From: a virus | Length of the DNA stretch: 52,512 bases | Reading direction: 5' to 3' (one strand) | IMG/VR virus record: IMGVR_UViG_3300021368_000894 | Location: 1-52,512 of that record | Shown here: one piece after another, positions 2,770 through 40,618 of the stretch | Numbering within the stretch: the first letter of the stretch is position 1 | Layout of the letters: every line of letters starts with the position of its first letter | The notes under the pieces: model-generated | The model's input: only the letters and a program-made list of their open reading frames with translations | What the model was told of the DNA's origin: nothing | Databases searched by the model: none | Program-made: the position numbers and the translations under genes

Positions 2770-3600
2770 TTATCCGATCATGTCCATTGGAGGAAGACTG
2801 TACTTAGACATCATATCTGCTTCTAATTGCATAATTTCTCTATTTCCATCCTCCCAGATCTGACGACCATTAAGAGTGATGCCACCAGGAAGTTGTACAT
2901 TATTGTACTTAATCAAGTTTGCTCCCCATTGTCTTTTGATTAGAGCAGTCGCATATTTTTTGACAAAACTATCGTTATAAACTTGAGTAAAAGTATTTGG
3001 GTCTAGATAGCGATGGCAATCAATAAGAAGATATTGATCTTCAACAATTCGTTTCTTATCAATATCAATATAAAGTCGATCTTGTCTCTTGTTAAATCTA
3101 TATTCAATTAAAGCACCTGTATTGATAATCATATCAATAGTTTCAAAGTGCTGCTTGATCATGAAGTAGTTGGTCAGATCAAAATTACCAAAACTAAATG
3201 CAGAACCTGATGAGAATGAGAACAAGTCCATCAAATAGTATTGGTTGCTCATACCAAACAAGTTGTTCCTCATAAAGTTTGAGGAGACACCAAAGACTTT
3301 GGAAACACCAATAACTGCATCAGGGACTTCGATGTAGTTATTTCTGTTTTCCCATGCATCATTATTAGGAGCAGTAGTATCCTGATCTGATTCGTCAAAA
3401 CGAGTTACATCATCAGCAGTGAATTGATGTTTAAGATACATCCTTTCCACGCCATCAAAATGATATTCATGATAATATTGAATAGCATCATCAATTAGAT
3501 CATCTACCTGATCATCATCCACATTGATCTCTAAGACAGGTGCTCCAAGTCTTCTAAGACAATAATCAGTAAACTCCGCTCTACTTGACGGTTGTGCCAT
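2770..3600 (-). CDS. gp13: neck protein (T4 gp13-like)
   Basis: 276 aa (T4 gp13 is 309 aa). A head-completion and neck protein that works with gp14 to form the platform for tail attachment. The N-terminus SRAEFTDYCLRRLGAPVLEI followed by D-D-Q-V-D-D-L-I-D-D-A-I-Q-Y-Y-H-E-Y-H is the hallmark of the family, as is the C-terminal helix containing FVKKYATALIKRQWGANL. The family-typical LPGGITLNG-Q-I loop is present. Start ATG is preceded by a weak AGG and, 22 bases upstream, by a late promoter box CATAAATA (3622-3629), so gp13-16 probably form one late transcription unit. Confidence 0.93.
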   Translation of the reverse strand: MAQPSSRAEFTDYCLRRLGAPVLEINVDDDQVDDLIDDAIQYYHEYHFDGVERMYLKHQFTADDVTRFDESDQDTTAPNNDAWENRNNYIEVPDAVIGVSKVFGVSSNFMRNNLFGMSNQYYLMDLFSFSSGSAFSFGNFDLTNYFMIKQHFETIDMIINTGALIEYRFNKRQDRLYIDIDKKRIVEDQYLLIDCHRYLDPNTFTQVYNDSFVKKYATALIKRQWGANLIKYNNVQLPGGITLNGRQIWEDGNREIMQLEADMMSKYSLPPMDMIG

Positions 3601-3641: not shown

Positions 3642-4250
3642 TCAAGTAGATAACTGTTTAATCATTACTCTACATGTGTCAGCTATAGTTACTGCGGCTC
3701 CAGTAACTGTGCTAAGTCTTCTCATTGTAAATCTAAAATCATCGCCACTAGTAAAACTTTCAATTGTATGAAGGTTATATGCAGTTTCTTCAGCGCCACT
3801 GCTGCGACGGATATATCCATCTTCAATTCTAGCTAGTAATGTTCCACTATCTGAGTTTAGACGCATATCTAGTTGACCCGTATATCTATAGTTACTTCCT
3901 GCAGTGCCTCTAAGACAAAACTCAATATTAACTTCATACACTCCTGTTTCGTTTATCGTATAAATGCCACCACTTTCTGAGTAGATAGAATCATTAAAAG
4001 ATGATGCAACATCAATATTACTAATTCTACTAGCAGTGGTGCTGTTAAAGTTTTCATTACCAGTAGGATCTTTATAGATAGCAACTTTCATTGCAGATGA
4101 TCCACCACTAGGAGCATCAACCCAGCTTGTCCCAGTTGCAGTAGAACTTAATAGTTGACCAGAGGTTCCTACATCACCAGAACTATCCGTTAGAGTCCCA
4201 TCTACTTGAAGACTCCCATATACTCTACTTCCACCTTTTAACTTTGCCAT
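3642..4250 (-). CDS. C1q-like jelly-roll virion protein
   Basis: 202 aa. The N-terminus (YGSLQVDGTLTDSSG, then GTSGQLLSSTATGTSWVDAP, residues about 11-47) is a phage-fibre attachment segment. Residues about 55-202 form a C1q/TNF-like jelly roll: a strand with GGIYTINETGVYEVNIEF, then SSGAEETAYNLHTI and TSGDDFRF, which is the usual 'G-x-Y-x-x-x ... L-x-x-G-D' pattern. It is the fourth member of a family whose other three genes lie at 15374-16955. Such domains usually trimerise at fibre tips, so host binding is a reasonable inference. It sits between the large adhesin gene and gp13, preceded by its own late promoter box. Confidence 0.8.
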   Translation of the reverse strand: MAKLKGGSRVYGSLQVDGTLTDSSGDVGTSGQLLSSTATGTSWVDAPSGGSSAMKVAIYKDPTGNENFNSTTASRISNIDVASSFNDSIYSESGGIYTINETGVYEVNIEFCLRGTAGSNYRYTGQLDMRLNSDSGTLLARIEDGYIRRSSGAEETAYNLHTIESFTSGDDFRFTMRRLSTVTGAAVTIADTCRVMIKQLST

Positions 4251-4269
4251 CAGTATCTTAGTTTTTTAC

Positions 4270-4277
4270 TATTTATT
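4270..4277 (-). promoter_or_regulatory. late promoter box abutting the stop of the adhesin gene
   Basis: Minus-strand AATAAATA directly after the TAA stop of the 1346-aa gene and 19 bases before the next ATG at 4250. Confidence 0.6.
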
Positions 4278-7200
4278 TTACGAACCAGAATAGTCTGGAT
4301 TTTGAATAAATGGAGCAAAGTTTTTTACTGAGTTTTGGTAAATATTTTTTATTTCTAAATCATCTAGTTGTCTACTGTACAGTAATACGTTTCCAATTAC
4401 TCCATCAAAATACGCCTCAGCTCCAGACGTGTGTTGTTCTGCTCCAACTTTAACGGTATTAATACCACTGGTACTATATGTGTTTGTTGGACTTAAAAAA
4501 CTAAGATCATTACCAGTTTTAGGTTCTCCATTCACATAACATTTTATATCACCAATAGTTCCCGAACTTGCCATAGAAAAAGCAATCATTTGATATGAGT
4601 TTCTTTCATATCCTTCAGCTTCGATAAGGTTCATTACTGAACTATCAATTTCAACATAACCATTTCCAAGTTCTAGTCTAGCAGCACCTTGACCTGTTAC
4701 TCTAACAGTAAATCTTTCTCCTGATTGGTTTCGACCATATGAAAATAATCTAGCATTAGTAGCATCAGTTTGATTATATTTAAATCCAACTATAATAGTC
4801 CTTGCTGCTGATCCTGTAACACCATTATAAGAAGAACCACTATTAGAACCATCACATGCTCCATATCTAGCAGTGCCATCAAATCCCACACCGCGATATT
4901 TTATATCAGTATTATCAGGAATGAAAAGAACACCAGGAATATTTGGACTAACAGGTCCAGTTGTATCTCTATCTAGATCTTCAATAACAAAAGCATTCCA
5001 TTCTTGTGCTTGAGGTGGAATGATAAGTTTTCTGTCTCCTGATACTGGATACTTGGTTGCTGCATAAAAATATGGATTACTAGAACTAACATCCGCTTCG
5101 TTTGCTCCAGCAGCTAATAGTTTTGCATCTCCTATTGCTACAAGTTTTCCCCAATTTGAAAGAGTTGTTATATCAGTACCTCCTTGAAAAGATTCTGGTT
5201 GTGTTTCACCATCATTACCAAAAATATATGTTGTATTAAGAAAACCTGTTGTAGTTCCAAATAATCTGGATCCTCCAACAATAAGAGTTCCATCCGACCT
5301 ATCAACGTCTAAGGTACTTCCAAAAAAAGTATTAGCAGTACCTGTAGGATTAGAGATCTTATATTCATTTGTTCCATCTAAATCATAACGATAAACTGCT
5401 CCTTTTTTGGAATCATGCCCAGGAGCTCCTACGTATATTTTGCTATTTCCTATAGCAACACAGAATCCAAACTCATCATCACTGGATCCATCGGAAGCAG
5501 TAATTTTAGTTTCTCCAGTTCCATCTACATTGAATACATAAACTGCTCCTTCCGCAGAATTAATGCTACTATCTCCTACTACAATTTTACCATTTGCCAT
5601 AGCACCAGAAACGCCCCATGATGTAGTAATATTAGAATCGGTAGAAGTAATTTTAGTTTGGTATGTTCCATCTAAGTCAAAAACATATGCTGCTTGTCTA
5701 GCAGTAACTAAAATCTTTCCATTATCAATATCTACATCATATCCAAATAATAAATCATCTGCGGAATCTGGGGGAGTGACCCAACTTGAATAATCAATTG
5801 ATTCACCTGAAGCAGTTAAACTAATAATAGTTATTGCTCCTCTATCGTCTCCAACAGATCCAAAAGCTTTATCTTTAGGAGCACCTACAACAACTGTATT
5901 TTCAGCAACGGCAACAGCAAATCCAAACTGATCACCATCTCCCAATCCCTGAAGAGAAGAAAATATAATTTCTCCTGTTCCATCTAAATTATAGATAGAT
6001 ACTTGAGACAATTCGCTAGTCGAAGGACTAGGATTACCAATAACAATTTTTCCACTTCCTATAGAGATAGAATTAGAATATAAAGCATAACCCGCATTGT
6101 AATTTCCATCCAATGATGTTAATGGAAAGAAATGTTCTGAACCTACCGTATTAACAAAATTATAATGAATATTAGTACCAGTAAGAGGGAACTCTTCATA
6201 TGATGGAATTACTGTTTTTTTTATAAGTGTTGTAGGATTATTACCAGAACTAGAAACAGTGCCATTACTAGATATACTGACATCTAAACCATTATTACCT
6301 GCTGAATATAATCTATATTTGGGGTTTCCAAAAAGACTCTTCTGATTTCTAACAAGAATCTCTACACTTTGTCCTACTTGAACTTTTGGATTTGCAGAAC
6401 ATATCAACCAGTAATCATCTCCCGAGCTGGATTGTCCACCTCTACTTCCATTTTTGGTGAAGTTACTATTAATATTTAAATGCCTATTATTACCACTAAG
6501 ATCATCCCATGTAGTTACAGCAGTAGTAACGGTTTGATCTGCTGTGAGTGTTGTTGGATATTCTCTACCCGTTCCCCAAATAATCCTAACGATACCATTT
6601 GCACCATCTCCGCCATCTTGGTTGTCTTTACCGCCACCGCCACCGCCACCATACAATCCTCCATTACCACCATTATCATTTGATGTGGTTTGCCCTTGCC
6701 CACCACCGGAACCGCCACCACCGCCAGTTCCGCCTATTCCGGCAAATCCATTAGTTAATGATGTAGCCGTCACTCCTACACCACCACCGCCACCACCTGC
6801 AGCAGACACCCCGCCGCTGCCACCGCCACCACCGCCACCATTAGTACCAGCACTAGCATTATTGGATCCTCTATCACCACCATCACCGCCATCACCACCA
6901 TAACCAGCAGCACCACCACCGCCACCAGCTCCATTAGTGGAATCTGAAGTAGCTCCACCAGCACCACCATTTGCCGCTCCATATCCTGTCAGCGTGAATA
7001 TTGATGTCCCAACTCCACCAGCACCACCACCGGATTGATTTTCATCAGTTGATGATCCACCTTCTCCACCAGTTGCCTGCGCGTATACCCTCGTAATTCC
7101 TACATCGGATGATATAGAAGAAGTTCCACCAGTAGCACCAATATCACCACCAGCACCACCTGCACCAACTACTACTGAATATTGTTGATATGCTCTTGCA

Positions 7201-8318
7201 CTCAATTTAGCATAAGCAAGTCCACCACCACCGCCACCTGCTCCGGGTTCATCGTCATTAGTAGCGTTTCCACCTCCACCACCGCCACCAACGACAATAG
7301 CAGAAGAATCGGAAACACCTGCAGGCATTGTAAATGTGTAACTTCCTGGAGTTGTGTAGTCAATCTGTCCTTGAGTATCTCCAGTGGTAGTGAAGGTTCC
7401 ATTTATATCAAAATGAAGTTCTAAACCATTTGTAGGAATATCATCAAAAGGCTCTATTTCATCAATGTTTCCTAAAGTAAAAAGAGTTCCAGCTGGATCA
7501 GTTCTTATTGTAGGAGTATTGTCAATTTGTTTTGGTTTAAGTTCAAGAGTAATTGCTGCATATGAATCACTGCCACTACCACCAAATGCTCCTGGATTGA
7601 TGGATCCAGCGGATACATTAGATTGGTAAGCAGCCATTACAGTAGCTCCAGTGGATCCATCGTCACTTTCGGATTCAATCATAGTGAAACCAGTTGGAGC
7701 TGTAACAGGAAATACTTGATCATCATCTAGAAATCCAATAATAACAACAGTCGAACCAGCACTTACTGTTAGTGCTCCTGGATTAGGCATACTAAAATTA
7801 CCAGTAGAAGTTATAAAATTAATACTAGAAGGAGTAAGACATTCAGGATCAACTCCACTAAAAGCAAACTGAATATTTGGAGCTCCAGATATAGTTGTAG
7901 CAGATTGAGAACTATTCCCAACATTATAATACGACAATGCATAGTTTGGATTGTCATTAGTACCTCTATCGATACCTACCCATTTAAGTGGATAATCTAC
8001 CTCATTAATATCATGACAATGTGCATGAAAAACAACATCACCTGACTCTACTGATGCCATTGTTGTTAGAGAGGTGGATCCATCATAATCAGCACTTGAC
8101 CCTAGTGAAATAGTTTCAGTAGAAATAGAAGATATAGATGTTTGTTCATCAATTTCAGTACAAAGAACTTTAGACTCCTTAGTAACTTTAAAGTCACTAA
8201 CGTTTGTATCTCTCTCGTCAAACTCAACCGCACGAAGGTTTCCCGGTGTAGGAAATTGTTCCAAGACAACATCTCCTGGTGGTAACTCCCTTCCTGTTAG
8301 TTTTGCAACGTTTCCCAT
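4278..8318 (-). CDS. large adhesin: Gly-rich domain, FG-GAP propeller and LamG-like domain
   Basis: 1346 aa, a putative receptor-binding fibre-tip protein. Residues 1-330 are a beta-rich N-terminal part of unknown family. Residues about 336-576 are extremely Gly-rich, with runs of 6-8 glycines, resembling the polyglycine-helix tips of phage adhesins such as S16 gp38. Residues about 730-1090 hold repeated 'I-x-V-G-A/G ... G-A-V-Y-x-Y/F-x-x-D-G-T' units (for example NSKIYVGAPGHDSKKGAVYR), the FG-GAP beta-propeller pattern. Residues about 1110-1343 look like a concanavalin A/LamG domain, ending with GVIGNVLLYSRQLDDLEI. The start is 2 bases after the stop of the preceding fibre gene with no clear ribosome binding site, so coupling is likely. 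Carbohydrate binding is inferred from the domains. Confidence 0.85.
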   Translation of the reverse strand: MGNVAKLTGRELPPGDVVLEQFPTPGNLRAVEFDERDTNVSDFKVTKESKVLCTEIDEQTSISSISTETISLGSSADYDGSTSLTTMASVESGDVVFHAHCHDINEVDYPLKWVGIDRGTNDNPNYALSYYNVGNSSQSATTISGAPNIQFAFSGVDPECLTPSSINFITSTGNFSMPNPGALTVSAGSTVVIIGFLDDDQVFPVTAPTGFTMIESESDDGSTGATVMAAYQSNVSAGSINPGAFGGSGSDSYAAITLELKPKQIDNTPTIRTDPAGTLFTLGNIDEIEPFDDIPTNGLELHFDINGTFTTTGDTQGQIDYTTPGSYTFTMPAGVSDSSAIVVGGGGGGGNATNDDEPGAGGGGGGLAYAKLSARAYQQYSVVVGAGGAGGDIGATGGTSSISSDVGITRVYAQATGGEGGSSTDENQSGGGAGGVGTSIFTLTGYGAANGGAGGATSDSTNGAGGGGGAAGYGGDGGDGGDRGSNNASAGTNGGGGGGGSGGVSAAGGGGGGVGVTATSLTNGFAGIGGTGGGGGSGGGQGQTTSNDNGGNGGLYGGGGGGGKDNQDGGDGANGIVRIIWGTGREYPTTLTADQTVTTAVTTWDDLSGNNRHLNINSNFTKNGSRGGQSSSGDDYWLICSANPKVQVGQSVEILVRNQKSLFGNPKYRLYSAGNNGLDVSISSNGTVSSSGNNPTTLIKKTVIPSYEEFPLTGTNIHYNFVNTVGSEHFFPLTSLDGNYNAGYALYSNSISIGSGKIVIGNPSPSTSELSQVSIYNLDGTGEIIFSSLQGLGDGDQFGFAVAVAENTVVVGAPKDKAFGSVGDDRGAITIISLTASGESIDYSSWVTPPDSADDLLFGYDVDIDNGKILVTARQAAYVFDLDGTYQTKITSTDSNITTSWGVSGAMANGKIVVGDSSINSAEGAVYVFNVDGTGETKITASDGSSDDEFGFCVAIGNSKIYVGAPGHDSKKGAVYRYDLDGTNEYKISNPTGTANTFFGSTLDVDRSDGTLIVGGSRLFGTTTGFLNTTYIFGNDGETQPESFQGGTDITTLSNWGKLVAIGDAKLLAAGANEADVSSSNPYFYAATKYPVSGDRKLIIPPQAQEWNAFVIEDLDRDTTGPVSPNIPGVLFIPDNTDIKYRGVGFDGTARYGACDGSNSGSSYNGVTGSAARTIIVGFKYNQTDATNARLFSYGRNQSGERFTVRVTGQGAARLELGNGYVEIDSSVMNLIEAEGYERNSYQMIAFSMASSGTIGDIKCYVNGEPKTGNDLSFLSPTNTYSTSGINTVKVGAEQHTSGAEAYFDGVIGNVLLYSRQLDDLEIKNIYQNSVKNFAPFIQNPDYSGS
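6590..7310 (-). repeat. low-complexity Gly-codon tract in the adhesin
   Basis: About 720 bases rich in GGT/GGC codons (seen as CCACCACC on the plus strand), encoding poly-Gly runs. It produces long but meaningless proline-rich and valine-rich open frames in other phases. Confidence 0.9.
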
Positions 8319-8320
8319 AA

Positions 8321-11300
8321 TTATGATGCGTTATATACGAAGTCTAGACTGTCGTCAGTTTCATTATATAGTATCTCAAATCTCTCGGTAGATGCTGAGT
8401 TCTCGCATCTTACTGCTCCTTTAACTGTAACATCTGCAGTAGCAGTTAGTGTTCCTGTTACCGTAGCACCAGAAGTAGTAGTTTCAAGTTTTTTGGAATT
8501 GTTGTGATAGAGATCTACACTACCATCTTTAGTAGCGGTAAATAAAGTGTCTGAATTGGTTGTCTCACTCATAGTGAAGACACTACCATTCCAACTCATA
8601 CTCATATTATCTTGAATACCACCAGTAACATCATCAAAAACTAGTGTTGGAGTATCAGATTGAATCCAAACTTGACCTGTACCTTGCGTAAAAATCTTAA
8701 GATCTTGACCTGTAGCAGTCGTAATCTGATTAGTTGCGCCTGCTGCATCATGATAAATCTGTAGGTCTTGAGAAGCACCAAACTGTAACCTATCATCGGT
8801 GGCACTACTACTATCGCCAAATTGAATTAGATTACCATTGGTGTCTAATGTTCCACCAAGTTGTGGTGTTGTATCTTCTACAACATTGGAGATTCCACCA
8901 CCACCACCAGTGCTAACAGAACCATCTGCCATCAAGAACTGGGAAGATGTTCCGCCAGACTTAACGATTGAAGTTGCAGTTAGTGCTCCTGTTACCGTAA
9001 CGCCAGAAATGGTAGTTATCAAAGTTTGAACATTGTTGTGATAAAGTTCACATGCTCCATCAGCATTAAACAATGCAATATTTTCAGTGCCACCTGTTTG
9101 TTGGATAGCAAATAAATTACCAGCAGGAACGCGAGTAAGTAGGTTACCTGTTGAATTATCTATGTATGAACTCGACCCATCATGATAAATCTGCAGATCT
9201 CGGCCATCGCCAAAATGTGCTCTATTAACCATTTCACCACTACTATCAGGAAATTCAATTACATTACTATTGGTATTTAAATCTCCACCAAGTTGTGGTG
9301 TAGTGTCATTTACAACATCAGATGAGATTCCACTCAGTCCAGAACCGTCGCCAGTTGGTGTGAGATAATCTGTGCCAGCAACAGCAGCAGAAATAGTTGT
9401 TCCATTAGACTTGACAATTCCATTAATGGCAGCAACTACAGGATCAGTTTCTGTATAAGAAGTTAGATATGTTTGAAGATCACTAATCTGAGATTCTGTA
9501 ATAGATAATGCTGCCTGGTGCTGTGTTACAGAACTTTCAGTGATATTAGCATTAGGTACATTTGCCCAAGTAACCGCAGAAGAAAGATCATTAGTTTCTG
9601 TATAAGAAGTTAGATATGTTTGAAGATCACTAATTTGAGATTCAGTGATACTTAATGCTGCCTGATGTTGAGTTACACTCGATTCGGTGATATTAGCATC
9701 GGGTACATTTGCCCAAGTAACCGCAGAAGAAAGATCATTAGTTTCTGTATAAGATGTCAAATACGTAGAACTATCAACAGAACCATCTGCCTTTAAGAAC
9801 TGGGAAGATGTTCCGCCATTTTTAATAAATGCTTCTGCTTCAATATCCTTATTAGAGACCCACTTAGTTCCACTATGAGAATAGTTAAAGGTAGCACTAG
9901 CACCGTCAACAGTTAAACCTGCACCATCTGCTGCAGCAGAGTCAGCAGCACCTGAAGCAACAGTGATGTTTAAATCCGAGACATCTAGAGTGGTCGTATT
10001 TAGAGTTACCGTAGTTCCATTGACAGTAAGGTTACCACTCAAAGTGAGATTTGTACCAGTAGCATTTGTTGCCAATGCACTAGCAGTTGCAGCATTACCT
10101 GAAGTGTTAGCACTTAAAGTATTTGTAGATGCATTATAAGTGTAGTTAGCACTATTAGTGAATATCTGTTCGTCTCCTGTCGCAGTTCTAACGAACACAG
10201 GGAAACATGTAGTATCACTAGCGTTGTTTCCTAAGTCAACGGTAGAGGCAACTGAAGCAATATCAGCAGTTCCAGCAAGATTTGCACTAATTTTATTTGT
10301 AGATGCATTATACAGTAAACTAGAACTATTAGTGAATATCTGTCGATCCCCTCCAGAATCTTTAACGAATGTCAAGAAACATGTAGTATCACTAGCGGTG
10401 TTTCCTAAGTCAACTGTAGAGGCAACAGAGGCAGTTCCAGTAAGATTTGCACTTATAGTATTTGTAGATGCATCATAAAGTAAATTAGAACTATTTGTAT
10501 TTATCCGTTGAGCTCCTGATGTGGCTCTAACGAATGTTAGAAAACATGAACTATCGGTAGCGTTGTTTCCTAAATAAACCAACTCAGCTTTAGTTGCATT
10601 TGCAGCAATACCTGAGGTGTTAGCACTTATAGTATTTGTAGATGCATCATAAGTGTAGTTAGCACTATTAGTGAATATCTGTTGAGTTCCAGTTGTATCT
10701 CTAACAAACAAAGGGAAACATGTAGTATCAGTGGCGTTGTTTCCTAAGTCAACCTTATCAGCATCAGTCGCATTAGAAGCAGTTCCAGTTAGATTTGCAC
10801 TTATAGTATTTGTAACTGAATCATAAAGTAAATTGTTACTATTAGTGAATATCTGTCGATCCCCTCCAGAATCTCTAACGAATGTCAAGAAACATGTATC
10901 ATCACTAGCGGTGTTTCCTAAGTCAACTGTAGAGGCAACTGAAGCAGTTGTTGATAAAACATTCGTAGATGGATTATATGTAAGACCAGTATCAACTTCT
11001 GGTCTTTGAGATCCTGTAGATCCATCAACAAAAACTAAGTATACTGATTCATTAGTGTTGTTATTTTCGTGGACATCGATATTCTGAGCAAGAGTTGCTT
11101 CTGATGCAGTAACAGAACTCCATGTTACATTACCAGAACCATCACTAGTTAAAACATATCCACTAGTTCCATTTGTAGTTGGATAAGATAGTCCCCCAGC
11201 AGTAAGAGAACCTGTAATGGTTGCATCTCCACTAGCACTAATACTACCTAGAGTTGCACTGGTAGCAGTTACATTAGGAATATTGAACTCGCCAGTTGAT

Positions 11301-11584
11301 GGAACGTATCTTAAACTCGTATCAGTTCTGAGGTTTTCATCTCCAGTTGTAGCATCAACAAAAGTGATGTAATGAAACCCAGATGCACTATTTGTAGCAG
11401 TTAGAGATACAGTCTCTGCATTAGCACCAACATCTACAATACTTTCCGTTCCGTCAACATTTTTCTTGATGAATACTTTTCCATCATACGTATTGATCGC
11501 TACTTCTCCCAACGCCAACTGTGTAGTTGTGGGAACTGAATTAGCCGTAGCAGATCTACGTAATTTAATTGTTGGGGCTGCCAT
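8321..11584 (-). CDS. tail-fibre-like protein with LRR adaptor and tandem TCF repeats
   Basis: 1087 aa. The N-terminus (TIKLRRSATANSVPTT, then LALGEVAINTYDGKVFIKK) is a phage fibre adaptor of the type found at the start of Mtd-like and many marine-phage fibres, probably for anchoring to the baseplate. Residues about 60-500 hold seven imperfect repeats of 55-60 aa; five contain a single Cys in 'D-T/S-T/S-C-F-x-x-F-V' followed by 'T-N-S ... Y-D/N-A-S-T-N-x-I-S-A'. Next comes GNLTVNGTTVTLNTTTLDV, two 49-aa repeats (SYTETNDLSSAVTWANVP ...), and two copies of an 'F-G-x-x-x-D-L-Q-I-Y-H-D' unit. The C-terminus is ESLDFVYNAS-like. Function: elongated trimeric fibre shaft, inferred. It is 17 bases from the small coiled-coil gene before it. 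Confidence 0.85.
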   Translation of the reverse strand: MAAPTIKLRRSATANSVPTTTQLALGEVAINTYDGKVFIKKNVDGTESIVDVGANAETVSLTATNSASGFHYITFVDATTGDENLRTDTSLRYVPSTGEFNIPNVTATSATLGSISASGDATITGSLTAGGLSYPTTNGTSGYVLTSDGSGNVTWSSVTASEATLAQNIDVHENNNTNESVYLVFVDGSTGSQRPEVDTGLTYNPSTNVLSTTASVASTVDLGNTASDDTCFLTFVRDSGGDRQIFTNSNNLLYDSVTNTISANLTGTASNATDADKVDLGNNATDTTCFPLFVRDTTGTQQIFTNSANYTYDASTNTISANTSGIAANATKAELVYLGNNATDSSCFLTFVRATSGAQRINTNSSNLLYDASTNTISANLTGTASVASTVDLGNTASDTTCFLTFVKDSGGDRQIFTNSSSLLYNASTNKISANLAGTADIASVASTVDLGNNASDTTCFPVFVRTATGDEQIFTNSANYTYNASTNTLSANTSGNAATASALATNATGTNLTLSGNLTVNGTTVTLNTTTLDVSDLNITVASGAADSAAADGAGLTVDGASATFNYSHSGTKWVSNKDIEAEAFIKNGGTSSQFLKADGSVDSSTYLTSYTETNDLSSAVTWANVPDANITESSVTQHQAALSITESQISDLQTYLTSYTETNDLSSAVTWANVPNANITESSVTQHQAALSITESQISDLQTYLTSYTETDPVVAAINGIVKSNGTTISAAVAGTDYLTPTGDGSGLSGISSDVVNDTTPQLGGDLNTNSNVIEFPDSSGEMVNRAHFGDGRDLQIYHDGSSSYIDNSTGNLLTRVPAGNLFAIQQTGGTENIALFNADGACELYHNNVQTLITTISGVTVTGALTATSIVKSGGTSSQFLMADGSVSTGGGGGISNVVEDTTPQLGGTLDTNGNLIQFGDSSSATDDRLQFGASQDLQIYHDAAGATNQITTATGQDLKIFTQGTGQVWIQSDTPTLVFDDVTGGIQDNMSMSWNGSVFTMSETTNSDTLFTATKDGSVDLYHNNSKKLETTTSGATVTGTLTATADVTVKGAVRCENSASTERFEILYNETDDSLDFVYNAS
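9555..9754 (-). repeat. 53-base exact direct repeat with 147-base period
   Basis: The stretch 9555-9607 recurs without a mismatch at 9702-9754, offset 147 bases (49 codons), within the fibre gene. The surrounding 147-base units are also highly similar. This is a likely site for repeat-number change. Confidence 0.85.
10325..10939 (-). repeat. near-identical 102-base direct repeats in the TCF array
   Basis: Bases 10325-10426 and 10838-10939 differ at three positions by eye, offset 513 bases, a multiple of three that keeps frame. They belong to the larger 10090-11400 protein repeat array and point to recent duplication or conversion. Confidence 0.8.
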
Positions 11585-11601
11585 GGTGATACCTATCTAG
11601 G

Positions 11602-11835
11602 TTAAAACTCACCACCATCCTTAACTGTATCTACAGTTTTCTTACGAGTAGATGGTGATTTTTTTGAAGCGTTATCTAACGCTTTTTGTAACTCGGAAAC
11701 ATTATCTAATGTTTCCTGTAATTTTTTTTCATGACACTTAATACGTGCCTCCAAAGCAACAATCTGGCTGAGTTGTGTTGACAATTTTTCAGTCATCACC
11801 TCAACCAGAGTTGCGTAATCTACTTGAACATCCAT
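11602..11835 (-). CDS. small coiled-coil protein between two fibre genes
   Basis: 77 aa. Residues about 8-57 form heptad-rich helix (MTEKLSTQLSQIVALEARI, then K-L-Q-E-T-L-D-N-V-S-E-L-Q-K-A-L), followed by a basic Ser/Lys tail and a C-terminal VKDGGEF. No family is recognised. Size and architecture resemble the T4 fibre chaperone gp57A (79 aa, coiled coil), and it lies between two fibre genes, so a fibre-folding or trimerisation role is a hypothesis only. A late promoter box, GATAAATA, precedes it; no Shine-Dalgarno is obvious before the ATG. Its last five residues resemble those of the two fibre-region proteins before it (D-x-G-T-Y). Confidence 0.75.
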   Translation of the reverse strand: MDVQVDYATLVEVMTEKLSTQLSQIVALEARIKCHEKKLQETLDNVSELQKALDNASKKSPSTRKKTVDTVKDGGEF

Positions 11836-11855
11836 AATAAAAATACAATATCAAT

Positions 11856-11863
11856 TATTTATC
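11856..11863 (-). promoter_or_regulatory. late promoter box overlapping a stop codon
   Basis: Minus-strand GATAAATA, whose GA lies within the TGA stop of the 521-aa fibre gene; 20 bases before the ATG at 11835. Confidence 0.65.
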
Positions 11864-13427
11864 AATAGGTTCCAGCATCAACTACTAGGTTCTGGAGGTA
11901 TCTTCCAGCGGTTGCACCATCAGGAGCATCACCAGCAGCAAGGTAACTAATAACTGCTTCGTTAGTTCCGGCAGTGTCTGTTACATTATAAGCAAGTGAT
12001 AAGAATGCAACTGGTGTTGGAGCAGCATCACTGCCACTACCAGCAATAGCAGTAGTACCAGCAACGAATAAATCCGCTCCTTCGTCATAACCAATGAATA
12101 CATTGTCTAATGAACCACGATTAACAATCAGACCAGAATCTGAAGTAGGAGCAGTGCTACCACCAAGTCCCTGTTGCAGTTCAAGGATAGCATCTGTGAC
12201 TGTCGTATTTGTTGTATTGACAGTAGTAGTTGTTCCATTAACTGTTAGGTTACCTTGGATCGTAACAGTAGATCCATTATCAGAAATAGAACTATTTACA
12301 AGTTGATCAGTAGACCACTTAAGAACTGCATTGTCTGTCAAGTTAGCAGCGTTCTTAAATGCTACGCTATCGGCAGCAACTGCAATACCATCTCCAGCAC
12401 CAACATTCAAACCTACAGTTTGACCTTCGCTTGCGGTTCCAGTCTTGGTAAGACCATTTCCTGCGGTTACATCCTCAACATAGTTACCATTAGTATCAGT
12501 GCTAAGATCAATAGGTCCAAGAGTAATTTCTTGACCAGAGATGCTTAGATAATCATGTGATGTATCATCAAGAGTTACATTAGTAGAATTATCTGTTCCT
12601 GCTGCATCAACACCTAAAGTTCCTCTAGCAGTAGCAGCATCTGCATCATCAATTAGAGATCTACCAAAAGCACTGATGGCAGTAGTAGCAGCACTAGTAG
12701 CAGAATCAAAGTATGGGAATGTATTTGCTGCTTGAGTTAATCCAGCAAGATCAGCAAGAATAGCATTCTGTGCTTGAACGTCTGTGCCGATAGTTAATCC
12801 GAGAGATGCTCTAGCAGTTGCTCCAGATTCTAGAACAAAGTTTGATCCATTACCAACAATGAATCCGCCATCAGTTGTCGATAAACCAGCAACATCAGCA
12901 ACAGTTCCTGTTCCAGCGATAGAGATAGCATCACCGTTTGTAGTGACAGTAACAGCGACTCCACTACCTCCAGAAGCAGTAAGTGTTTCACCATTAGAAA
13001 GAGTAGTGGTATTAGAACCATCTGAAATGGTCCAACCCGTATAACCACTTTCCTGGGTTACCCAAGACAAGTTGCCATTAGTATCTGACTGGAGAATCCT
13101 ATTTCCTCCAGGAGCATCTGGCCAAGTATATGTAGAATCGTTAGCAGTATCTGCAACCTTAAAGGTAACAGATCCACCACCACTACCATCAGTTCTGGAT
13201 AGAATTACAACTTCTCCAGATGCTGTAGCAGTAGCAGCTACCAGTGATTCATCGACACGAGCGGTAAAAGAACTACCACCAATAGTAACAAAAGAAGCAG
13301 ACCCATCTGCGATGTAAAGAACACCTGCGGTAGTATCTACAAAAGGTTCACCAATTAATGCATTATTAATACTTGCTGCGGAAGGAGACTGAGTTCCCCT
13401 TCTTAGTCTTAATCTTGGTGCTGCCAT
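11862..13427 (-). CDS. tail-fibre-like protein with LRR adaptor
   Basis: 521 aa. The N-terminus has the same adaptor as the 1087-aa fibre: PRLRLRRGTQSPSAASI, then LIGEPFVDTTAGVLYIADG, the pattern of Mtd-type N-terminal domains. The middle carries the common phage fibre repeat 'A-R-x-x-L-G-L-x-I-G-T-D-V-Q-A ... L-A-G-L-T ... F-G-R-S-L-x-D-x-x-x-A-x-x-A-R-x-T-L-G-V' at about residues 190-270. Then follow beta-rich segments including GNLTVNGTTTTVNT, shared with the 1087-aa fibre. The C-terminus is NLVVDAGTY. Function: trimeric fibre, inferred from family resemblance. Preceded by late promoter box ACTAAATA. Confidence 0.82.
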   Translation of the reverse strand: MAAPRLRLRRGTQSPSAASINNALIGEPFVDTTAGVLYIADGSASFVTIGGSSFTARVDESLVAATATASGEVVILSRTDGSGGGSVTFKVADTANDSTYTWPDAPGGNRILQSDTNGNLSWVTQESGYTGWTISDGSNTTTLSNGETLTASGGSGVAVTVTTNGDAISIAGTGTVADVAGLSTTDGGFIVGNGSNFVLESGATARASLGLTIGTDVQAQNAILADLAGLTQAANTFPYFDSATSAATTAISAFGRSLIDDADAATARGTLGVDAAGTDNSTNVTLDDTSHDYLSISGQEITLGPIDLSTDTNGNYVEDVTAGNGLTKTGTASEGQTVGLNVGAGDGIAVAADSVAFKNAANLTDNAVLKWSTDQLVNSSISDNGSTVTIQGNLTVNGTTTTVNTTNTTVTDAILELQQGLGGSTAPTSDSGLIVNRGSLDNVFIGYDEGADLFVAGTTAIAGSGSDAAPTPVAFLSLAYNVTDTAGTNEAVISYLAAGDAPDGATAGRYLQNLVVDAGTY

Positions 13428-13462
13428 GTGCCTTTTCTACGTAAAGAACAATATCCTTCCTA

Positions 13463-13470
13463 TATTTAGT
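13463..13470 (-). promoter_or_regulatory. late promoter box overlapping a stop codon
   Basis: Minus-strand ACTAAATA containing the TAA stop of the preceding 117-aa gene, 35 bases before the ATG at 13427. Confidence 0.6.
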
Positions 13471-13819
13471 AAGTTCCGTAATCTAAAGCATCATCGTCAG
13501 TTCCATCTGCTTGATCTAACACCTCAAACTTAGTTATATGTTCGTATTTTAATGTACCAGCATTCCATACTAACATACTACCATCGTGTCTTCTAGAAAT
13601 ATCAACATCAGTTGATGCTCCTAATGTAGTGGGACTAGGTGTACCCCCACCACCTGGATTGCTTGGTCCAGATCCTCCTCCGCCAGAATTACCTGATCCA
13701 CCGCCACCAACATTACCAAATCCTGGATTACTAACGACAACAGATGTGGCAACTTGTGACACACTCGTAGACACAACGTTACCACCCCGACCAGTGTTGA
13801 CTGTTATTTGATATGCCAT
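13466..13819 (-). CDS. Gly-rich linker protein of the fibre cluster
   Basis: 117 aa, no recognised family. Residues 1-33 are beta-like (MAYQITVNTGRGGNVVSTSV), residues about 34-62 are a Gly/Ser/Pro linker (GGGGSG repeats), and residues 68-117 form a small globular part with 'D-G-S-M-L-V-W-N-A-G-T-L-K-Y-E', a motif common in marine-phage fibre adaptors. It ends DDALDYGTY, close to the DAGTY end of the next gene product. The start follows the 119-aa gene by 8 bases. Possible role: flexible connector or short fibre; this is inference. Confidence 0.72.
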   Translation of the reverse strand: MAYQITVNTGRGGNVVSTSVSQVATSVVVSNPGFGNVGGGGSGNSGGGGSGPSNPGGGGTPSPTTLGASTDVDISRRHDGSMLVWNAGTLKYEHITKFEVLDQADGTDDDALDYGTY

Positions 13820-13827
13820 TTAAATTA

Positions 13828-14187
13828 CTACGAAAGTACAGAAGGTTCTACTTCAATGATACCCTCAATAACTTTTTCTTTTACTTCGGTGCTAGTATTT
13901 TCAATGAAGATATTATATACATATCTTCCTACCTTTAAACTAGTTGTTGTAGTTGTAAGAGCACCTCCATGATCAGGCATACTAATTCTTATTAGTCCTT
14001 CCGATGCATTTAAATCTCCCTGAGCATTTAGGGAAATTACATTGGAAGTAGTATAGTTTCTTGCCATAAAGGCACTTACAGTATATCCAGTTAGGTCAAT
14101 AAAATTACCATTAACGTCCTTGAGATTAAAGTCCGCATTGAAATCAGTGCCCTTAGTAATTGTTAAATTAACAGGTATTGCCGCCAT
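13828..14187 (-). CDS. Ig-like small baseplate/fibre protein (BppU-N-like)
   Basis: 119 aa. The pattern 'I-T-K-G-T-D-F ... L-K-D-x-N-G-N-F-I-D-L-T-G-Y-T ... A-F-M-A-R' followed by 'E-G-L-I-R-I-S-M-P' and 'V-G-R-Y-V-Y-N-I-F-I' is that of a beta-sandwich family frequent in tailed-phage baseplates and fibres (like the N-terminal domain of BppU). No catalytic motif. The ATG is supported by GGAGG 8 bases upstream; that ribosome binding site is the 3' arm of a long hairpin with a late promoter in its loop, suggesting late-specific translation. Confidence 0.75.
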   Translation of the reverse strand: MAAIPVNLTITKGTDFNADFNLKDVNGNFIDLTGYTVSAFMARNYTTSNVISLNAQGDLNASEGLIRISMPDHGGALTTTTTSLKVGRYVYNIFIENTSTEVKEKVIEGIIEVEPSVLS

Positions 14188-14191
14188 GAAA

Positions 14192-14227
14192 AAACCCTCC
14201 CATATTCTTATTTATATGAGAGGGTTT
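14192..14227 (-). terminator. 14-bp hairpin with late promoter in loop and RBS in 3' arm
   Basis: Arms 14192-14205 and 14214-14227 pair over 14 bp with one G-T wobble and an 8-base loop. On the minus strand the 3' arm runs into TTTTTT, the form of an intrinsic terminator. The 3' arm contains GGGAGGG, the only ribosome binding site for the gene starting at 14187, and the loop/5' arm holds TATAAATA. Confidence 0.8.
14209..14216 (-). promoter_or_regulatory. perfect T4-type late promoter box inside the hairpin
   Basis: Minus-strand TATAAATA, exact match to the T4 late consensus, 21 bases before the ATG at 14187. A transcript starting about 6 bases further on would lack the 5' arm of the hairpin. 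Confidence 0.8.
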
Positions 14228-14230
14228 CTA

Positions 14231-14431
14231 TCATTCTTCAGTTGTCTCTGGAGTCTCTGGAGTCTCTTCAGATTCTTCTTTAGGACTCAGAAGTTCTAAG
14301 GTTTCCATACCTCCTTGAAGTTTTAGTTTATACTCTTTTGCTTTAGCAAGGTTTGATTCTAATTCGGCAATCTGCTTATCTGTGGTAGCAAGTTGCTCTT
14401 CAAAGTTTGCTCTAAGTTGTTCAGTGTCCAT
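14231..14431 (-). CDS. small coiled-coil protein with acidic tail
   Basis: 66 aa from the ATG at 14431; an upstream in-frame TTG at 14440 would add three residues but is less likely. Residues 1-47 are a continuous heptad helix (DTEQLRANFEEQLATTDKQI ... LAKAKEYKLKLQGGMETLEL), followed by a Glu/Pro/Thr tail (EESEETPETPETTEE). No family is recognised; size and architecture recall T4 gp57A, the fibre-folding chaperone, which also ends in an acidic tail. A gp57A-like role is a hypothesis. Two late promoter boxes precede it, and a terminator hairpin starts just after its stop. No Shine-Dalgarno is apparent. Confidence 0.7.
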   Translation of the reverse strand: MDTEQLRANFEEQLATTDKQIAELESNLAKAKEYKLKLQGGMETLELLSPKEESEETPETPETTEE

Positions 14432-32112: not shown

Positions 32113-32293
32113 TTCTTACGATCTCTGCTAAAAGTTGCTTGATGTCAGATAGTTCTTCCTTCAATGTATTTATGTCACTCCTCATTAGCGATATAGTTTG
32201 AGACGCAGACTTTTTAGGGGGCAACTGCTTGTTTACAATTGCCCCTGTCTCTGGATCTCTATAAAGGTTATCGTGACCTTCGACTTTTATCAT
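32099..32293 (-). CDS. small protein with coiled-coil C-terminus
   Basis: 64 aa, embedded by overlaps on both sides: the ATG overlaps the previous stop by 4 bases (ATGA) and the end overlaps the next gene by 14 bases. The first 20 residues (IKVEGHDNLYRDPETGAIVN) match a motif I recall from small T4-like phage proteins; residues about 32-60 form a heptad helix (MRSDINTLKEELSDIKQLLA). No function is known. Length, overlaps and a clear amino-acid pattern argue that it is real. Confidence 0.75.
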   Translation of the reverse strand: MIKVEGHDNLYRDPETGAIVNKQLPPKKSASQTISLMRSDINTLKEELSDIKQLLAEIVRNASN

Positions 32294-35200
32294 ACCGAAG
32301 CAACAACTCTAATATCTTGGATCTTAGGAACATATGATGGGTCGTCAGTCTTCATTGAAATCTTAACTCCGAATGAAGTAAACTCATCTAAATTGTCCAC
32401 TGTGTATCTAAACTCTTGATACGATGTCTGCTCTTCTTTTTGAGCGGAGATTGTATTTTGTGGTGTGGCGAGTTTAGGTGTATCCTCAAATCCAGTTCCA
32501 TTAAACAACTCCCATTCAATATCTTCAAACTTCTTCTGGACAGAAGTTGTCTTGGTCTTGTATGCGAGTTGGATGTTCTCACTATCAGTTACATTTGCAG
32601 TGATGATAACATCAATTGCAGTTGCACCTTGTGTAAGACTAATCTCCTTAGTTGTATACTTGGCAACAGAAGAAGTGTCTTTTGCACTGTCTTCAGAAAC
32701 AAAGTCTACACCGTCAGAGAATGTCATCTTCTTGACTTCATAATATCTTTCATCTCCTGCTCCTAGATTCGACCAAGAAACAAGATCGCCAACTCTAAAG
32801 ATATCAGCAGACTGATCAGCAACTTGCTGGGTTCTAATGAAAGAACCAGTTCCACTAGCACTAGAGTAATCAGAATTGATTGGTTGCTTATCATTCTCTA
32901 AAGTCAGAGTCTGAGAAGGAACATCCCAAATACGGACGGTTCCGTTGATCAAGTTGTCGTATTTTTCAGTAGTATTAGAAGGATTGATTCCAGTAACCAA
33001 TTGACCGAAGGAGAAACTTGGATTTACCTTGATTGCTCCAGCAGCACTTACCACAACTGTGTTACTTTCTAATGCACCACTCTCTTGTGATTGTAGTGAG
33101 AAGAAGAGTTGCTCATTTGCTTTGAAAACATTGTTATTCTTAACTTTAACAAAGATAGTATTGTCGGAGTTTCTATACTTAACAACCTCACCACGAGAAC
33201 CAGATGCCTGGATATTTTGAGCATCGTTACCAATACCTTCAACAGTCTGACCAACATTGATAACAATTGGATTGCTGTTACCGTCTAGGTTACCACTTAG
33301 AGTCAATCTGTATACAGGATAGAACTCAATAACTTGATATCTCTTACCATATCTGTTCTCTTTACCAGAAGCATTCTCGATTCTGTTAGAAGATAGTTTG
33401 ATAGAAGATGTCTTGAGATCAAGGATCGGAGACAGATATGACTTAGTAGAAGAAAGTGTCAGTCTGTAGACAAGACTATTGCCGAGGTTATTAAGTAGAG
33501 TATTGATGTCTGATGCAACAACCTTTTGATTAATAAAGAACTGTTCTTCATTGAGGAACGTTCTTTCAAAATCAGCAACAGAATAAGAAGTATAGTTTTC
33601 AGTATTAGAGTCAACTGGAACTACATTAGTTGTCTTGATTGAAGTATCAATGTTCGTAGATGGAGACTGAATATATGAGAACTGAGCAAGAACTCTCTCA
33701 TACTTCTTATTAGAAGTAATAAGTCCACTAGCACCACCACCAAATACTGTATCTGCTGCTCTACCAATTCCTGACACACAGAATGTATCAACACCACAAT
33801 TAGATACCTTGAACAGAGTGGTGTTCAGTGCTCCTTGTGTGAATCCAGCAGTAGTCTCTAGATTCTTGAAGAACACATATGAACTACCATCTTCAAATCC
33901 ATGGTTCTTATGGTTGACTTTGATAATATTGTTGTTATTCTTGAACAACTCAGATGTTGCATTAGCATTAGCAAATGCATAAGTCTCAAGAGGATCATTG
34001 ACCATTTTCTCATAACCAAGTGACTGGTTAGTGATGTCAATGGTTGCGTTGGAAGAGATGTCAAACTCAGCACGATATAGAGTGAACTTGATATCTTCAA
34101 ACAGATCCTCTACCCATGAACCAGTGTTCTGTGACTTGTAGACAGAACCAAGTGATGGGTTAGTAGTAACTGTAGTATTGGTTGCGATTTCAGTCTCACC
34201 AAGTTTAGACGCCCAGATGCTATAATCTTGAGAATCTGTCTCAACAACCAGAGCATACTCGGTATTGTTCTGTAGATATACGGGATAGTCGAAGTGGAAC
34301 TTGGTTGGAGTTGTAGATGGAACAACGCCAGTGGTGTCTGTAGCAACACCCATTCTAACAGCAGGTTCTGTAATTTCGATCTCTGCTTCAATAACTGCTC
34401 CGCCATTGCCGAGTCCTGTACCTCTAATAACAATCGAAGGTGGTTCAGTATACCCTCTGCCAGCAAGAGTGATAGTAGAATCGTAGATTAAACCACCAGA
34501 GACTACAACCGTGCCTGTTGCGTTGCTACCGCCAGGTAGACTTGGAGACTCAACAGTAATAGTAGCAGTGTCATAGTTATCACCAGCATTAGTAACCTTC
34601 AGACCAGAGACAACACCAGAGTCCTTAGCAATTCTTGCAGTAATCTCAGTGTTGTTTGCATTGTTGAATGTAGTGATAGAAGAGATCTTCAGACGCTCAT
34701 CAGGAACGAATGAAATGCCATTGTTGTTGTCAAGAACGACAGTGTAAACTTGCTCATTGGTCAAGACAATCTCATTATCTTCTGAGATAGCAAGTTCATT
34801 GTTGTTCTTATCAAGAACCTTCAATACAGGACCAGATGCGTTGCTAGACTCTCCAGAAATGATCTCGTCCTTGAGAATAGTAACAGTGTCAGAAACGTAT
34901 ACCTTTAGGTAGGTATAAGGTTCGACAACAACCTCAGTTCCAGGAACAACATTCTTGCCTGGTTTCTCGGAGTTGACATCAGTCAGATATACACGAAGAG
35001 GAATGGTGTCGCTCTTAGTGCTGAGGAACAGATCTACACCAGTTGTGAATACACCACCCTCATAGTTCTCAACCTTAAAGGTTTGAGCGAGTGGGTTTGG
35101 TTTCTGCTCTTGCTCGGTGTTGCTAGAGACCAACTGGGTTCCTTCATTAGACTTGAAGTAAGCAGGTTTCGTAGATACGATAGAAGCAGGATTCTCTGGT

Positions 35201-38200
35201 AGCAGACCAGTTGCATAGAACTTAGTTTCTGCGAAGGTCTCTACGATTGCCTTATCTGCATTGGTGCTGCTAGATGTAAATCTGAGAGTCTTCTCACCAG
35301 TAGTGATTTTGACTTCTTCAGAACTTGCATCATAGGAAACAGTCTCTGCATCACCTGTCCATTGTGCTGCTTGACGTGGTGCCTTACCAGCAGGAATTAG
35401 GATGATGCCACTTGCATTACCATTTGCATCAGTAATGATAGGAGCATTGAATGTAGACAGAGAGTTGCCAGGGATTCCAGTGAATCTGATATCAGGAACA
35501 ACCCAACGGTTGATCTTCTTGCCTTCTAGGAATACAAATACTTCAGTCTTGGGTTTCAGTCTACGGATGTTGAACTTAACAGGAATGCTACGAGCAAAAT
35601 ACTGCAAGGAGTTGACAATAGACTTGCCACCACTTGTCTTAGTAGATACGCCCTTAGGAGTTTCGTTGTTCTGTGGACTGATGTTAGAAGAACTTGCAAC
35701 AGATGCAGGTGTTACCTCTTCTGCAACAATCTCATCATTCGTCTTAGACAGACCGTTGATATTATAGAAAGATCTCTCGGTTCCATTCCATGTTACGAGG
35801 AATGAGTTATACAGACTGCTGAATGCAGACGAGATATCATCCTTAGCAAGGAAAGGAACAAACAGGTTGGTGTTGTTATCTGTTACCAGAGGAACAGTGT
35901 TTCTGTCATACCAGGAATCAACATTAGGATCTACAGCAAGATCACCAACATACTGGAGAACAACAAATGGGTTTGGATTGATAGTCTTGGTAGCAAAGTT
36001 ATTACCAAGTAGTCTCTGGTTTGTGAATGGCAGAGAAAGAACACCATTGTTGTTTACATAACCAGCAACTCGTCTCTGGTCTTCTCTGGTGTTGACTTCT
36101 TTGACGAGGAGACTCTCTTCACTAACTTGTGGTCTCAAAACAGACTGCTGAGAATCGATAGCACAAGAGTAGTCAATAGACTTGACATCTCCCTTATGTG
36201 TTTCAAAGTTATCAACATAGAAACCAGTCTTAAATCTGTCTAGACCAATCTCATCCTGAACTTGCATATTCAATGCTTGCTGCTCAAGGATGCTTAGTGA
36301 TGTGTAATACTCAAGACGCTCGACACGTTGATTGAGTTTACCGATGTCCTTCATCGTGTAACGCTTGTTCTCTACAGGAACAATTCTTACATCTCTATAA
36401 CTATCGGTGTATGCAGGAACATACAGATAGAACAAAGGAATAGAATCACTAAGCGTCTCGGGTCTAGATGGGTTCAGTGAAGAGTTGCCCTTCTTGACAA
36501 TGAAACTACCTTGAGTGTTCAGGAATACACCATCAATTCTGTCCAGATACTGATCCTTGTTATACTTAACAGTCCAAGGTAGATTTGCATCATCAGATGG
36601 TGTGCTGGATGGAATACCAGAGGTTGCAGTGAATGACAGATATTCGTTCTGTGCAAGGAAGGATCTATCCTGATATCCAGGAAGGATGTTTGTGTTGTCA
36701 ACCTTAGGTCTGAAGTCAATGACATCCTTGAGGGATACCAGACCACTGACAGAAGAGTTGAATGTAGGAATCTCAGTCTCGGTAACACCTGCTTCATGCA
36801 GATAAGAGTCAATGGTGCAGAAGTCACCTTGTGAATGCTCGAAGTAATCGAATGCAATGATCAACTGTCCTGTAGGAGCAGATACTCCTGGTTTCAGAAC
36901 TAGTCTTGCAGTATCATAGAAAGTATCTCTTTGACCATTGTCGAAAGTATACTTATCAGTTACATCTACTCCAGAAACTAAGTTACCACCTGCATCTACA
37001 GTAGGAGGTGCAGATACAGAACCTTCATAGACATATCTCAGTTTGTATACGTCAGAATAAGAGACGATCTGGATAGTCTCACCACCGTTCTCTTGTCCTC
37101 TAAATGGAACAATATTTGTTCCACCAGACTGAACAATAATTTGCTTGTTTTCAACAGAAGTCTTCAGTCTTGGTTTTGCCTTAGATACCTGCAGTGTAGC
37201 AGTCAACTTCAATGTTGGGAAGTTGATAGCAGGAACATCGAATGTAGGATCTCCTACCTCTGGATTAGCAACTCTATTCTCTAGTGCTGCTCTAATTTGG
37301 TCAATGTTGCCAAAGTAGTTCTCTGGGAAGTTAATGGTAACACTACCAGCAGTCAGGTTGCTATCAGACTGCTCAATGGTTACAAATGAAGGGTCAATGT
37401 ATACAACGTCACCCTTCTTCAGTGCTCCTGTGAATGGAAGCAAGACAGGAGGATCATTGACAGGATCTGCTGCTGGTTCGGAATCGTGAATTGCAACACC
37501 AGGATCGAGAACAGTAATCAAGAAGTTTTCTTGAGTGAACTCAGCAAATCTCTGTGTTCCGAATGGGAGTTGTGCAGCAAACGTTAGGTTACCGCTACCA
37601 GAAGATGCAGTAGTAATGAAGTCTCTTCTAAAGTAGTAAGTGATCTTAGAATCTTCAGATGAATCAATCAGTGACTTGATCTGCTTATCGCCTGTTGGGA
37701 ATACTAGAGTTCCTACTGGATTCTCGATAAGAGGTCTCTGGTTTACAACAGATGCATTGACAACATCTGCTTGCAGAGTGCGATCTAGATAGATTCTTGA
37801 TCTCTTGACGCCATCAGGTCTAGTTGCATATTGAACAACATACTTGTATACATTGCCATCAACGTCGGAGAACTGAACGAGGTCGCCTTGGACAAGATTT
37901 CTCGATGCATCACCATTGAAACCATTACACTCAATGAACTTGTATCCTCTGGTTCCAGAGAATGTAAAGTCGGTGATAGAAGTAGTTGTGGTATAACCAG
38001 TTCTCTCTAGTTCGATGTCAGCAGAGAACTTGTTCTTGCTACCAGAACCAAAAGCAGAATACAGAGACTTGACGTTCTTAGGTGAGTAAGTATATACTGT
38101 ATTCCTAAAGAGAACAGGAACAATTGTTGCTGTGTTCAGTGGAAGTGGAGTAACGCCACCAATTTCTACTACAGGTGGTTGTGAGAAAATTTGTGTAACT

Positions 38201-40563: not shown

Positions 40564-40586
40564 TGTGTATTACTAACATTCTGATT

Positions 40587-40614
40587 TTCCTAACCTTATT
40601 TAGCAGGTTAGGAA
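40587..40614 (-). terminator. 9-bp perfect hairpin after gp8 with late promoter box in loop
   Basis: Arms 40587-40595 and 40606-40614 are perfect 9-base complements around a 10-base loop that contains TAAATA. No T-run follows on either strand, so intrinsic termination is uncertain; RNA 3'-end stabilisation of the gp8 message is an alternative. Confidence 0.6.
40597..40604 (-). promoter_or_regulatory. late promoter box in the post-gp8 hairpin loop
   Basis: Minus-strand GCTAAATA, 33 bases before the ATG at 40563; the same octamer precedes the giant fibre gene. Confidence 0.6.
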
Positions 40615-40618
40615 TAGA

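What the first reader, a model, noticed from the sequence alone, without database searches (positions are those of the whole stretch)
14185..14232. Late promoter inside a hairpin that hides the next gene's ribosome binding site
A 14-bp hairpin holds a perfect TATAAATA at its loop, and its 3' arm is the GGGAGGG ribosome binding site for the gene at 14187, followed by a T-run. Read-through RNA would fold, hiding the site and perhaps terminating; RNA started at the internal late promoter would lack the 5' arm and be translatable. T4 uses the same logic for genes such as e, soc and I-TevI. Here it controls a small Ig-like baseplate protein.
Basis: partly seen in the sequence, partly recalled or inferred. 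Interest (0 to 1): 0.72.

Follow-up and report, generated by a model that had tools for sequence, protein, structure and literature searches.

The report
Phage stop signal hiding a start
In a marine virus of bacteria, one short hairpin appears to stop RNA copying from the gene before it while holding, in its loop, the late start signal for the next gene; relatives keep this layout, which suggests how these viruses may insulate and time genes in very little space, though no experiment has yet tested it.

Summary
On the minus strand, 14227-14192 forms a 14-bp stem with an 8-nt loop (-24.9 kcal/mol, z -6.7; 0 of 200 shuffles as good). TATAAATA (14216-14209) spans the stem tip and loop, the 3' arm is GGGAGGG, then TTTTTTC and ATG (14187). 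The phage is a T4-like cyanophage fragment. Across relatives with the same upstream gene (T4-GC834), TAAATA is invariant (24/24) while the stem changes with compensation (7 pairs changed on both sides; covariation reached by 0/500 shuffles), and the U-run stays. A scan of all IMG/VR contigs finds 60 such hairpins directly before an ATG (31 distinct, at least 10 protein families), against 7 for a reversed-box control, none of them before a real ORF. So the conserved element is an intrinsic terminator with a late promoter in its loop. By T4 spacing, late RNA would start at about 14203, inside the 3' arm, and so bypass the terminator. It looks like a lineage-specific addition. No RNA ends are mapped.

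The parts
14214..14227 (-). 5' arm of the hairpin, AAACCCTCTCATAT
   Evidence: compensatory changes with the 3' arm in relatives
14209..14216 (-). T4-type late promoter box TATAAATA, spanning stem tip and loop
   Evidence: TAAATA invariant in 24/24 homologous hairpins; 21 nt from ATG, like other late boxes in the window
14206..14213 (-). hairpin loop AAATAAGA
14192..14205 (-). 3' arm ATATGGGAGGGTTT; holds predicted late transcription start at about 14203
   Evidence: start inferred from the T4 rule, box at -13 to -6 (PMC1524935)
14195..14201 (-). GGGAGGG, Shine-Dalgarno-like sequence inside the 3' arm, 7 nt from the start codon
   Evidence: P(unpaired) 0.00 in read-through RNA, 0.36-0.51 in late RNA
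14189..14194 (-). U-run TTTTTT, tail of an intrinsic-terminator-like signal and spacer before ATG
   Evidence: U-run kept in relatives
13828..14187 (-). downstream gene, 119 aa, phrog_1084 / phrog_3304 (L-shaped tail fibre assembly), LtfC/BppU-like beta-sandwich
14231..14428 (-). upstream gene, 65 aa, phrog_580 = T4-GC834, whose 3' end carries the hairpin in many relatives

Best explanation
A combined intrinsic terminator and late promoter. RNA polymerase coming from the upstream gene (T4-GC834 or earlier) transcribes both arms, the RNA folds, and transcription stops at the U-run, so upstream RNA does not run on into the fibre gene. Late in infection the gp55-type polymerase recognises TATAAATA in the loop and starts about 6 nt downstream, inside the 3' arm. 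That RNA lacks the 5' arm, so it cannot form the terminator and runs on into gene 13828-14187. In this phage the 3' arm (GGGAGGG) also serves as the Shine-Dalgarno site, 7 nt before ATG, so read-through RNA that escapes termination would also be poorly translated. Shown here: the fold, the box, covariation of the stem around an invariant box, the U-run, and the enrichment of the layout. Inferred: termination, the late start point, and the translational effect.
For: Fold and shuffle tests. Homologous junctions keep hairpin, box and U-run: 24 distinct hairpins, TAAATA invariant, 88.2% of cells paired against 76.8% shuffled and 41-61% slid, 7 pairs changed on both sides, covariation 0.324 against 0.148, 0/500. 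Where the hairpin is absent in relatives the box often remains at a similar place (L064-L069, L138), as expected of a promoter. Elsewhere a terminator stands directly before the box (L018, L126, L474-L505), so terminator and late promoter go together. Whole-collection scan: 60 hairpins with TAAATA before ATG (31 distinct, 25 with at least 7 bp, 21 before ORFs of 60 aa or more, at least 10 protein families) against 7, 5, 2 and 0 for the reversed box. Downstream genes that could be named include late structural genes: neck gp13, baseplate hub, tail tube, terminase, DNA end protector. gp55 homologs occur in records holding such hairpins. Late boxes in S-PM2 are NATAAATA (PMC2984593); CTAAATA is the Aeh1 form (PMC1524935).
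Against: No RNA ends, termination assay or reporter data for any of these phages. In nine complete or nearly complete T4-like genomes, hairpins around TAAATA in general (no U-run or start codon required) are no commoner than around permuted boxes: 21 of 1,327 against 1.1-1.8%. The element is rare per genome, about one, and only 5 of 12 complete genomes matched the motif. Some relatives carry a second ATAAATA just upstream of the hairpin (L007, L017, L049, L130), which could be the main promoter there. gp55 was not detected in about half of the scanned records, so the wider set may not all be T4-type.
Confidence: 0.66

Rival explanations
1. T4 gene e type timing switch: the hairpin's main role is to hide the ribosome binding site on early read-through RNA, and late RNA from the internal promoter is translatable. 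The U-run is only a spacer.
For: SD fully paired in read-through RNA, partly free in late RNA. Same geometry as T4 e. Similar masking predicted at L152, L154, L155, L248 and L221. Precedent for e, soc, 49 and I-TevI (PMC3014915, PMC2988022).
Against: In homologs of this junction (L205, L236, L222) and in the gp13 class the start codon is 13-20 nt past the stem and the 3' arm is not the SD, yet hairpin and U-run are conserved. The upstream genes themselves have late-type boxes, so early read-through is not shown.
Confidence: 0.2
2. Plain terminator of the upstream gene, with the box in the loop by chance or serving only weakly.
For: U-run and strong stem. TAAATA in hairpin loops is not enriched without the terminator and start-codon context.
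Against: TAAATA invariant in 24 hairpins whose stems differ. 60 against 7 in the box-reversal control. Box kept where the hairpin is lost.
Confidence: 0.07
3. The hairpin acts in another way, for example as an RNA processing or 3'-end stabilising stem, or as a DNA inverted repeat affecting the late polymerase; termination and masking are side effects.
For: A second hairpin-embedded box in the window (40603) has no U-run and no nearby start codon, so neither termination nor masking explains it.
Against: That second hairpin is present in only part of the relatives, whereas the U-run is kept at the GC834 junction.
Confidence: 0.07

Closest known systems
T4 genes e, soc, 49 and intron gene I-TevI: late promoter inside an RBS-sequestering hairpin
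   Same: Late box at the hairpin tip or loop, SD in the 3' arm, late RNA lacks the 5' arm (PMC3014915, PMC2988022; T4 e found by the same scan).
   Different: The T4 e and soc hairpins have no U-run and are not described as terminators in the papers read. In relatives of the present element the terminator part is conserved and the RBS part is not.
Rho-independent terminators of T4-like phages
   Same: GC stem with U-run at the end of a gene. Terminators at conserved places in T4-like genomes are reported (PMC1524935).
   Different: Ordinary terminators have no promoter in the loop. Here the loop holds an invariant late box that lets one kind of transcript skip the terminator.
T4-type late promoters of cyanophages and relatives (NATAAATA in S-PM2, CTAAATA in Aeh1)
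   Same: Same box and same distance to the start codon as other late genes in the window.
   Different: Most late boxes in the window are in unstructured DNA; this one is inside a strong hairpin.
PeSL cassettes of T4-type phages (early promoter plus stem-loop; recalled from memory, paper not held)
   Same: A promoter coupled to a terminator-like stem-loop.
   Different: PeSLs carry early promoters; here a late promoter lies inside the loop. Not tested.

Membership tests
T4 gene e type RBS-sequestering late hairpin | Shine-Dalgarno site paired in the long transcript | tested here: met
   P(unpaired) 0.00 for 14201-14195 in read-through RNA by folding
T4 gene e type RBS-sequestering late hairpin | late promoter placed so that late RNA lacks the 5' arm | tested here: met
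   box 14216-14209 and T4 spacing put +1 at about 14203, inside the 3' arm; sequence only, start not mapped
T4 gene e type RBS-sequestering late hairpin | earlier transcripts read through the site untranslated | not testable with these tools
   no RNA data; upstream genes carry late-type boxes
T4 gene e type RBS-sequestering late hairpin | RBS masking conserved in relatives of the junction | tested here: not met
   start codon 13-20 nt past the stem in homologs; so it is filed as working like this family in part, not as a plain member
intrinsic (Rho-independent) terminator | stable GC-rich stem directly followed by a U-run | tested here: met
   14 bp, -24.9 kcal/mol, TTTTTT; stem and U-run kept in relatives
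intrinsic (Rho-independent) terminator | RNA 3' ends at the U-run | not testable with these tools
   needs RNA 3' end mapping or in vitro transcription
T4-type (gp55) late promoter | TATAAATA or close variant a short way upstream of late genes | tested here: met
   9 of 10 coding-strand ATAAATA lie 19-54 nt upstream of ORFs
T4-type (gp55) late promoter | phage encodes gp55 | tested here: inconclusive
   the window record is only a 52.5 kb fragment; gp55 is present in relatives S-PM2 and others

The most novel reading that the evidence does not exclude
Marine T4-like phages carry a recurrent bifunctional element, a late promoter inside the loop of an intrinsic terminator. One sequence blocks all upstream transcription, yet lets the phage's own late transcripts pass because they begin inside the 3' arm. 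In a subset, including this window, the 3' arm is also the ribosome binding site, so transcription stop, late start and translation control are packed into about 40 bases.
Probability: 0.55. Interest if true: 0.7.

Novelty: new variant of a known kind. Interest (0 to 1): 0.58.

Why it matters
If true, marine T4-like phages solve insulation and timing in about 40 bases: the signal that ends one unit contains the start of the next, and a transcript's start point decides whether it can be stopped there. The layout recurs at unrelated late genes with different stems, which suggests repeated selection. It also affects annotation, since terminator and promoter predictors treat the two signals apart, and operon maps of these phages cut at terminators. 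It gives direct tests in cultured phages such as S-PM2 and Syn1, which carry it before gp13.

Tried and rejected
Rfam: no match in the window. Generic terminator scan: hairpin not listed. Chance box: rejected by position and conservation, although TATAAATA by count alone is not enriched. General enrichment of TAAATA in hairpin loops over nine complete or nearly complete genomes without U-run or start-codon context: not found, 21 of 1,327 against 1.1-1.8% for permuted boxes, so the claim is limited to terminator-type hairpins before genes. MAFFT puts L205, L236, L222 and L007 one base out of register, which lowers the covariation score, so that result is conservative. Close homologs of the fibre gene in viral contigs: only one at 44%; more came in through the pattern scan (L205, L236, L222). 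Cyanophage transcriptome and PeSL papers are not held; paper searches found no description of a late promoter in a terminator loop, which is weak evidence because the library is partial.

Full report
What is there. On the minus strand the stop codon of a 65-aa gene (14231-14428) is followed by TAGAAACCCTCTCATATAAATAAGAATATGGGAGGGTTTTTTC and the ATG of a 119-aa gene. The sequence folds into a 14-bp stem (one G-U) with an 8-nt loop, -24.9 kcal/mol, z -6.69, 0 of 200 dinucleotide shuffles as stable, and 0 of 5000 when the box is held fixed. TATAAATA (14216-14209) covers the last three stem bases and five loop bases. The record is a 52.5 kb viral fragment. Its genes match T4-like cyanophage structural genes (neck, head closure, baseplate wedge, fibre families), and DNA relatives of the region are Synechococcus and Prochlorococcus myoviruses.

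The box is a late promoter. Intergenic DNA is only 632 nt of the window, yet 8 of 10 ATAAATA on the coding strand lie in it and 9 of 10 lie 19-54 nt upstream of an ORF start. CTAAATA also lies 22-35 nt upstream of five ORFs. NATAAATA is the late motif reported for S-PM2 (PMC2984593) and CTAAATA for Aeh1 (PMC1524935). By the T4 rule (box at -13 to -6) transcription would start at about 14203, inside the 3' arm, giving a 16-nt leader.

The hairpin is conserved with the box. The upstream gene is T4-GC834 (phrog_580). In about 50 IMG/VR relatives, S-PM2 and Syn1 it is followed directly by neck gene 13, and between them stands a hairpin with (A/C)TAAATA in the loop and a U-run. Stems differ widely (CCCTACTTC/GAAGTAGGG, CCCTGCCTG/CAGGTAGGG, CCCTTCTTAC/GTAAGAAGGG, CCCGTCTTAC/GTAAGACGGG, CCCTTCGTATA/TATACGAAGGG). 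On 24 distinct hairpins TAAATA is invariant; 88.2% of pair cells are standard against 76.8% in shuffles and 41-61% when slid; 7 of 12 pairs change on both sides; the covariation score of 0.324 is reached by 0 of 500 shuffles. In the window about 10 kb of fibre genes (14187 down to 3642) lie between this hairpin and gp13 (2770-3600), so the hairpin has stayed with GC834 and now precedes a fibre gene; gp13 has its own CATAAATA without a strong hairpin.

Terminator first, masking second. In relatives with the same upstream and downstream genes (L205, L236, L222) the start codon lies 15-16 nt or more past the GGG of the stem, and in the gp13 class 13-20 nt; only the window has 7 nt and a GGAGG in the arm. 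Folding predicts complete masking of the SD in read-through RNA for the window (0.00 against 0.36-0.51 in late RNA) and strong masking for several unrelated junctions (L152, L154, L155, L248, L221), but less for the gp13 class. Other relatives have the box without a hairpin (L057, L064-L069, L001), or a terminator immediately followed by the box (L018, L126, and many upstream of the homolog of gene 32290-40563). The constant is a late promoter, often coupled to a terminator; the loop form is the compact version.

How general. A scan of all IMG/VR contigs for CCCT-gap-TAAATA-gap-AGGGNTTTTTNATG gave 60 hits: 31 distinct cores, 25 with at least 7 uninterrupted pairs, 21 followed by ORFs of 60 aa or more, in at least 10 protein families. 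The reversed box gave 7 hits, 5 distinct, 2 with such stems, none before an ORF of 60 aa. Named downstream families include head-tail adaptor, baseplate hub and tail lysozyme, tail tube, terminase large subunit and DNA end protector. gp55 homologs were clear (E 9e-53 or better) in 7 of 18 tested records, with one weaker and one marginal hit, so not all hits are proven T4-type. Without the terminator and start-codon context there is no enrichment in nine complete or nearly complete genomes.

Compared with what is known. T4 e, soc, 49 and I-TevI use a late promoter inside or next to an RBS-masking hairpin (PMC3014915, PMC2988022), and the same scan recovers T4 e and soc. The present element works like these as regards the late start point, but adds a U-run, and it is the terminator part that relatives conserve. 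Paper searches found no description of a late promoter in a terminator loop, but key cyanophage transcriptome papers are not held. It is filed as a new variant of a known kind.

The downstream protein. phrog_1084/3304; LtfC-like beta-sandwich in a homolog just below Pfam's cut-off (25 bits against 27); model pLDDT 86.9 with a phage 80alpha baseplate chain as best PDB match (E 4.8e-5, TM 0.63).

What is inferred. Termination, the start point near 14203, the use of GGGAGGG by ribosomes and the timing are all predictions from sequence.

Noticed in passing
window 40573-40627, minus strand: A second late-type box, GCTAAATA, sits in the loop of a long hairpin (10-bp inner stem TTCCTAACCT/AGGTTAGGAA plus an outer stem, -23.4 kcal/mol) upstream of the 2757-aa gene at 40563. 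It has no U-run and the start codon is about 30 nt away, so neither termination nor masking explains it. Close relatives and Syn1 keep the hairpin; many others keep only the box or have a terminator in front of it.
   Followed up: partly
window 3642-14187: About 10 kb of fibre and adhesin-like genes separate T4-GC834 from gp13, which are neighbours in S-PM2 and most relatives; the terminator-promoter hairpin stayed with GC834.
   Followed up: partly
L139:140-200, L140, L141, L145 upstream of gp13: A different geometry with possibly the same logic: TTATAAATA overlaps the 5' arm of AAATACCCTTAG-gaaa-CTAGGGGTATTT followed by a T-run and ATG, so late RNA would start inside the terminator.
   Followed up: no
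window minus strand 14826, 14465, 13469, 27797: CTAAATA, partly overlapping stop codons, lies 22-35 nt upstream of several ORFs; this phage may use both ATAAATA and CTAAATA late boxes.
   Followed up: partly
L007, L017, L049, L130 upstream of gp13: A second ATAAATA lies just upstream of the hairpin whose loop holds CTAAATA or TAAATA, so two late promoters may flank and fill one terminator.
   Followed up: no
window 10150-11000, minus strand: The sigma-70 scan lists repeated promoter-like sites about 174 bases apart inside the 1087-aa fibre gene; they most likely reflect its internal protein repeats, not promoters.
   Followed up: no
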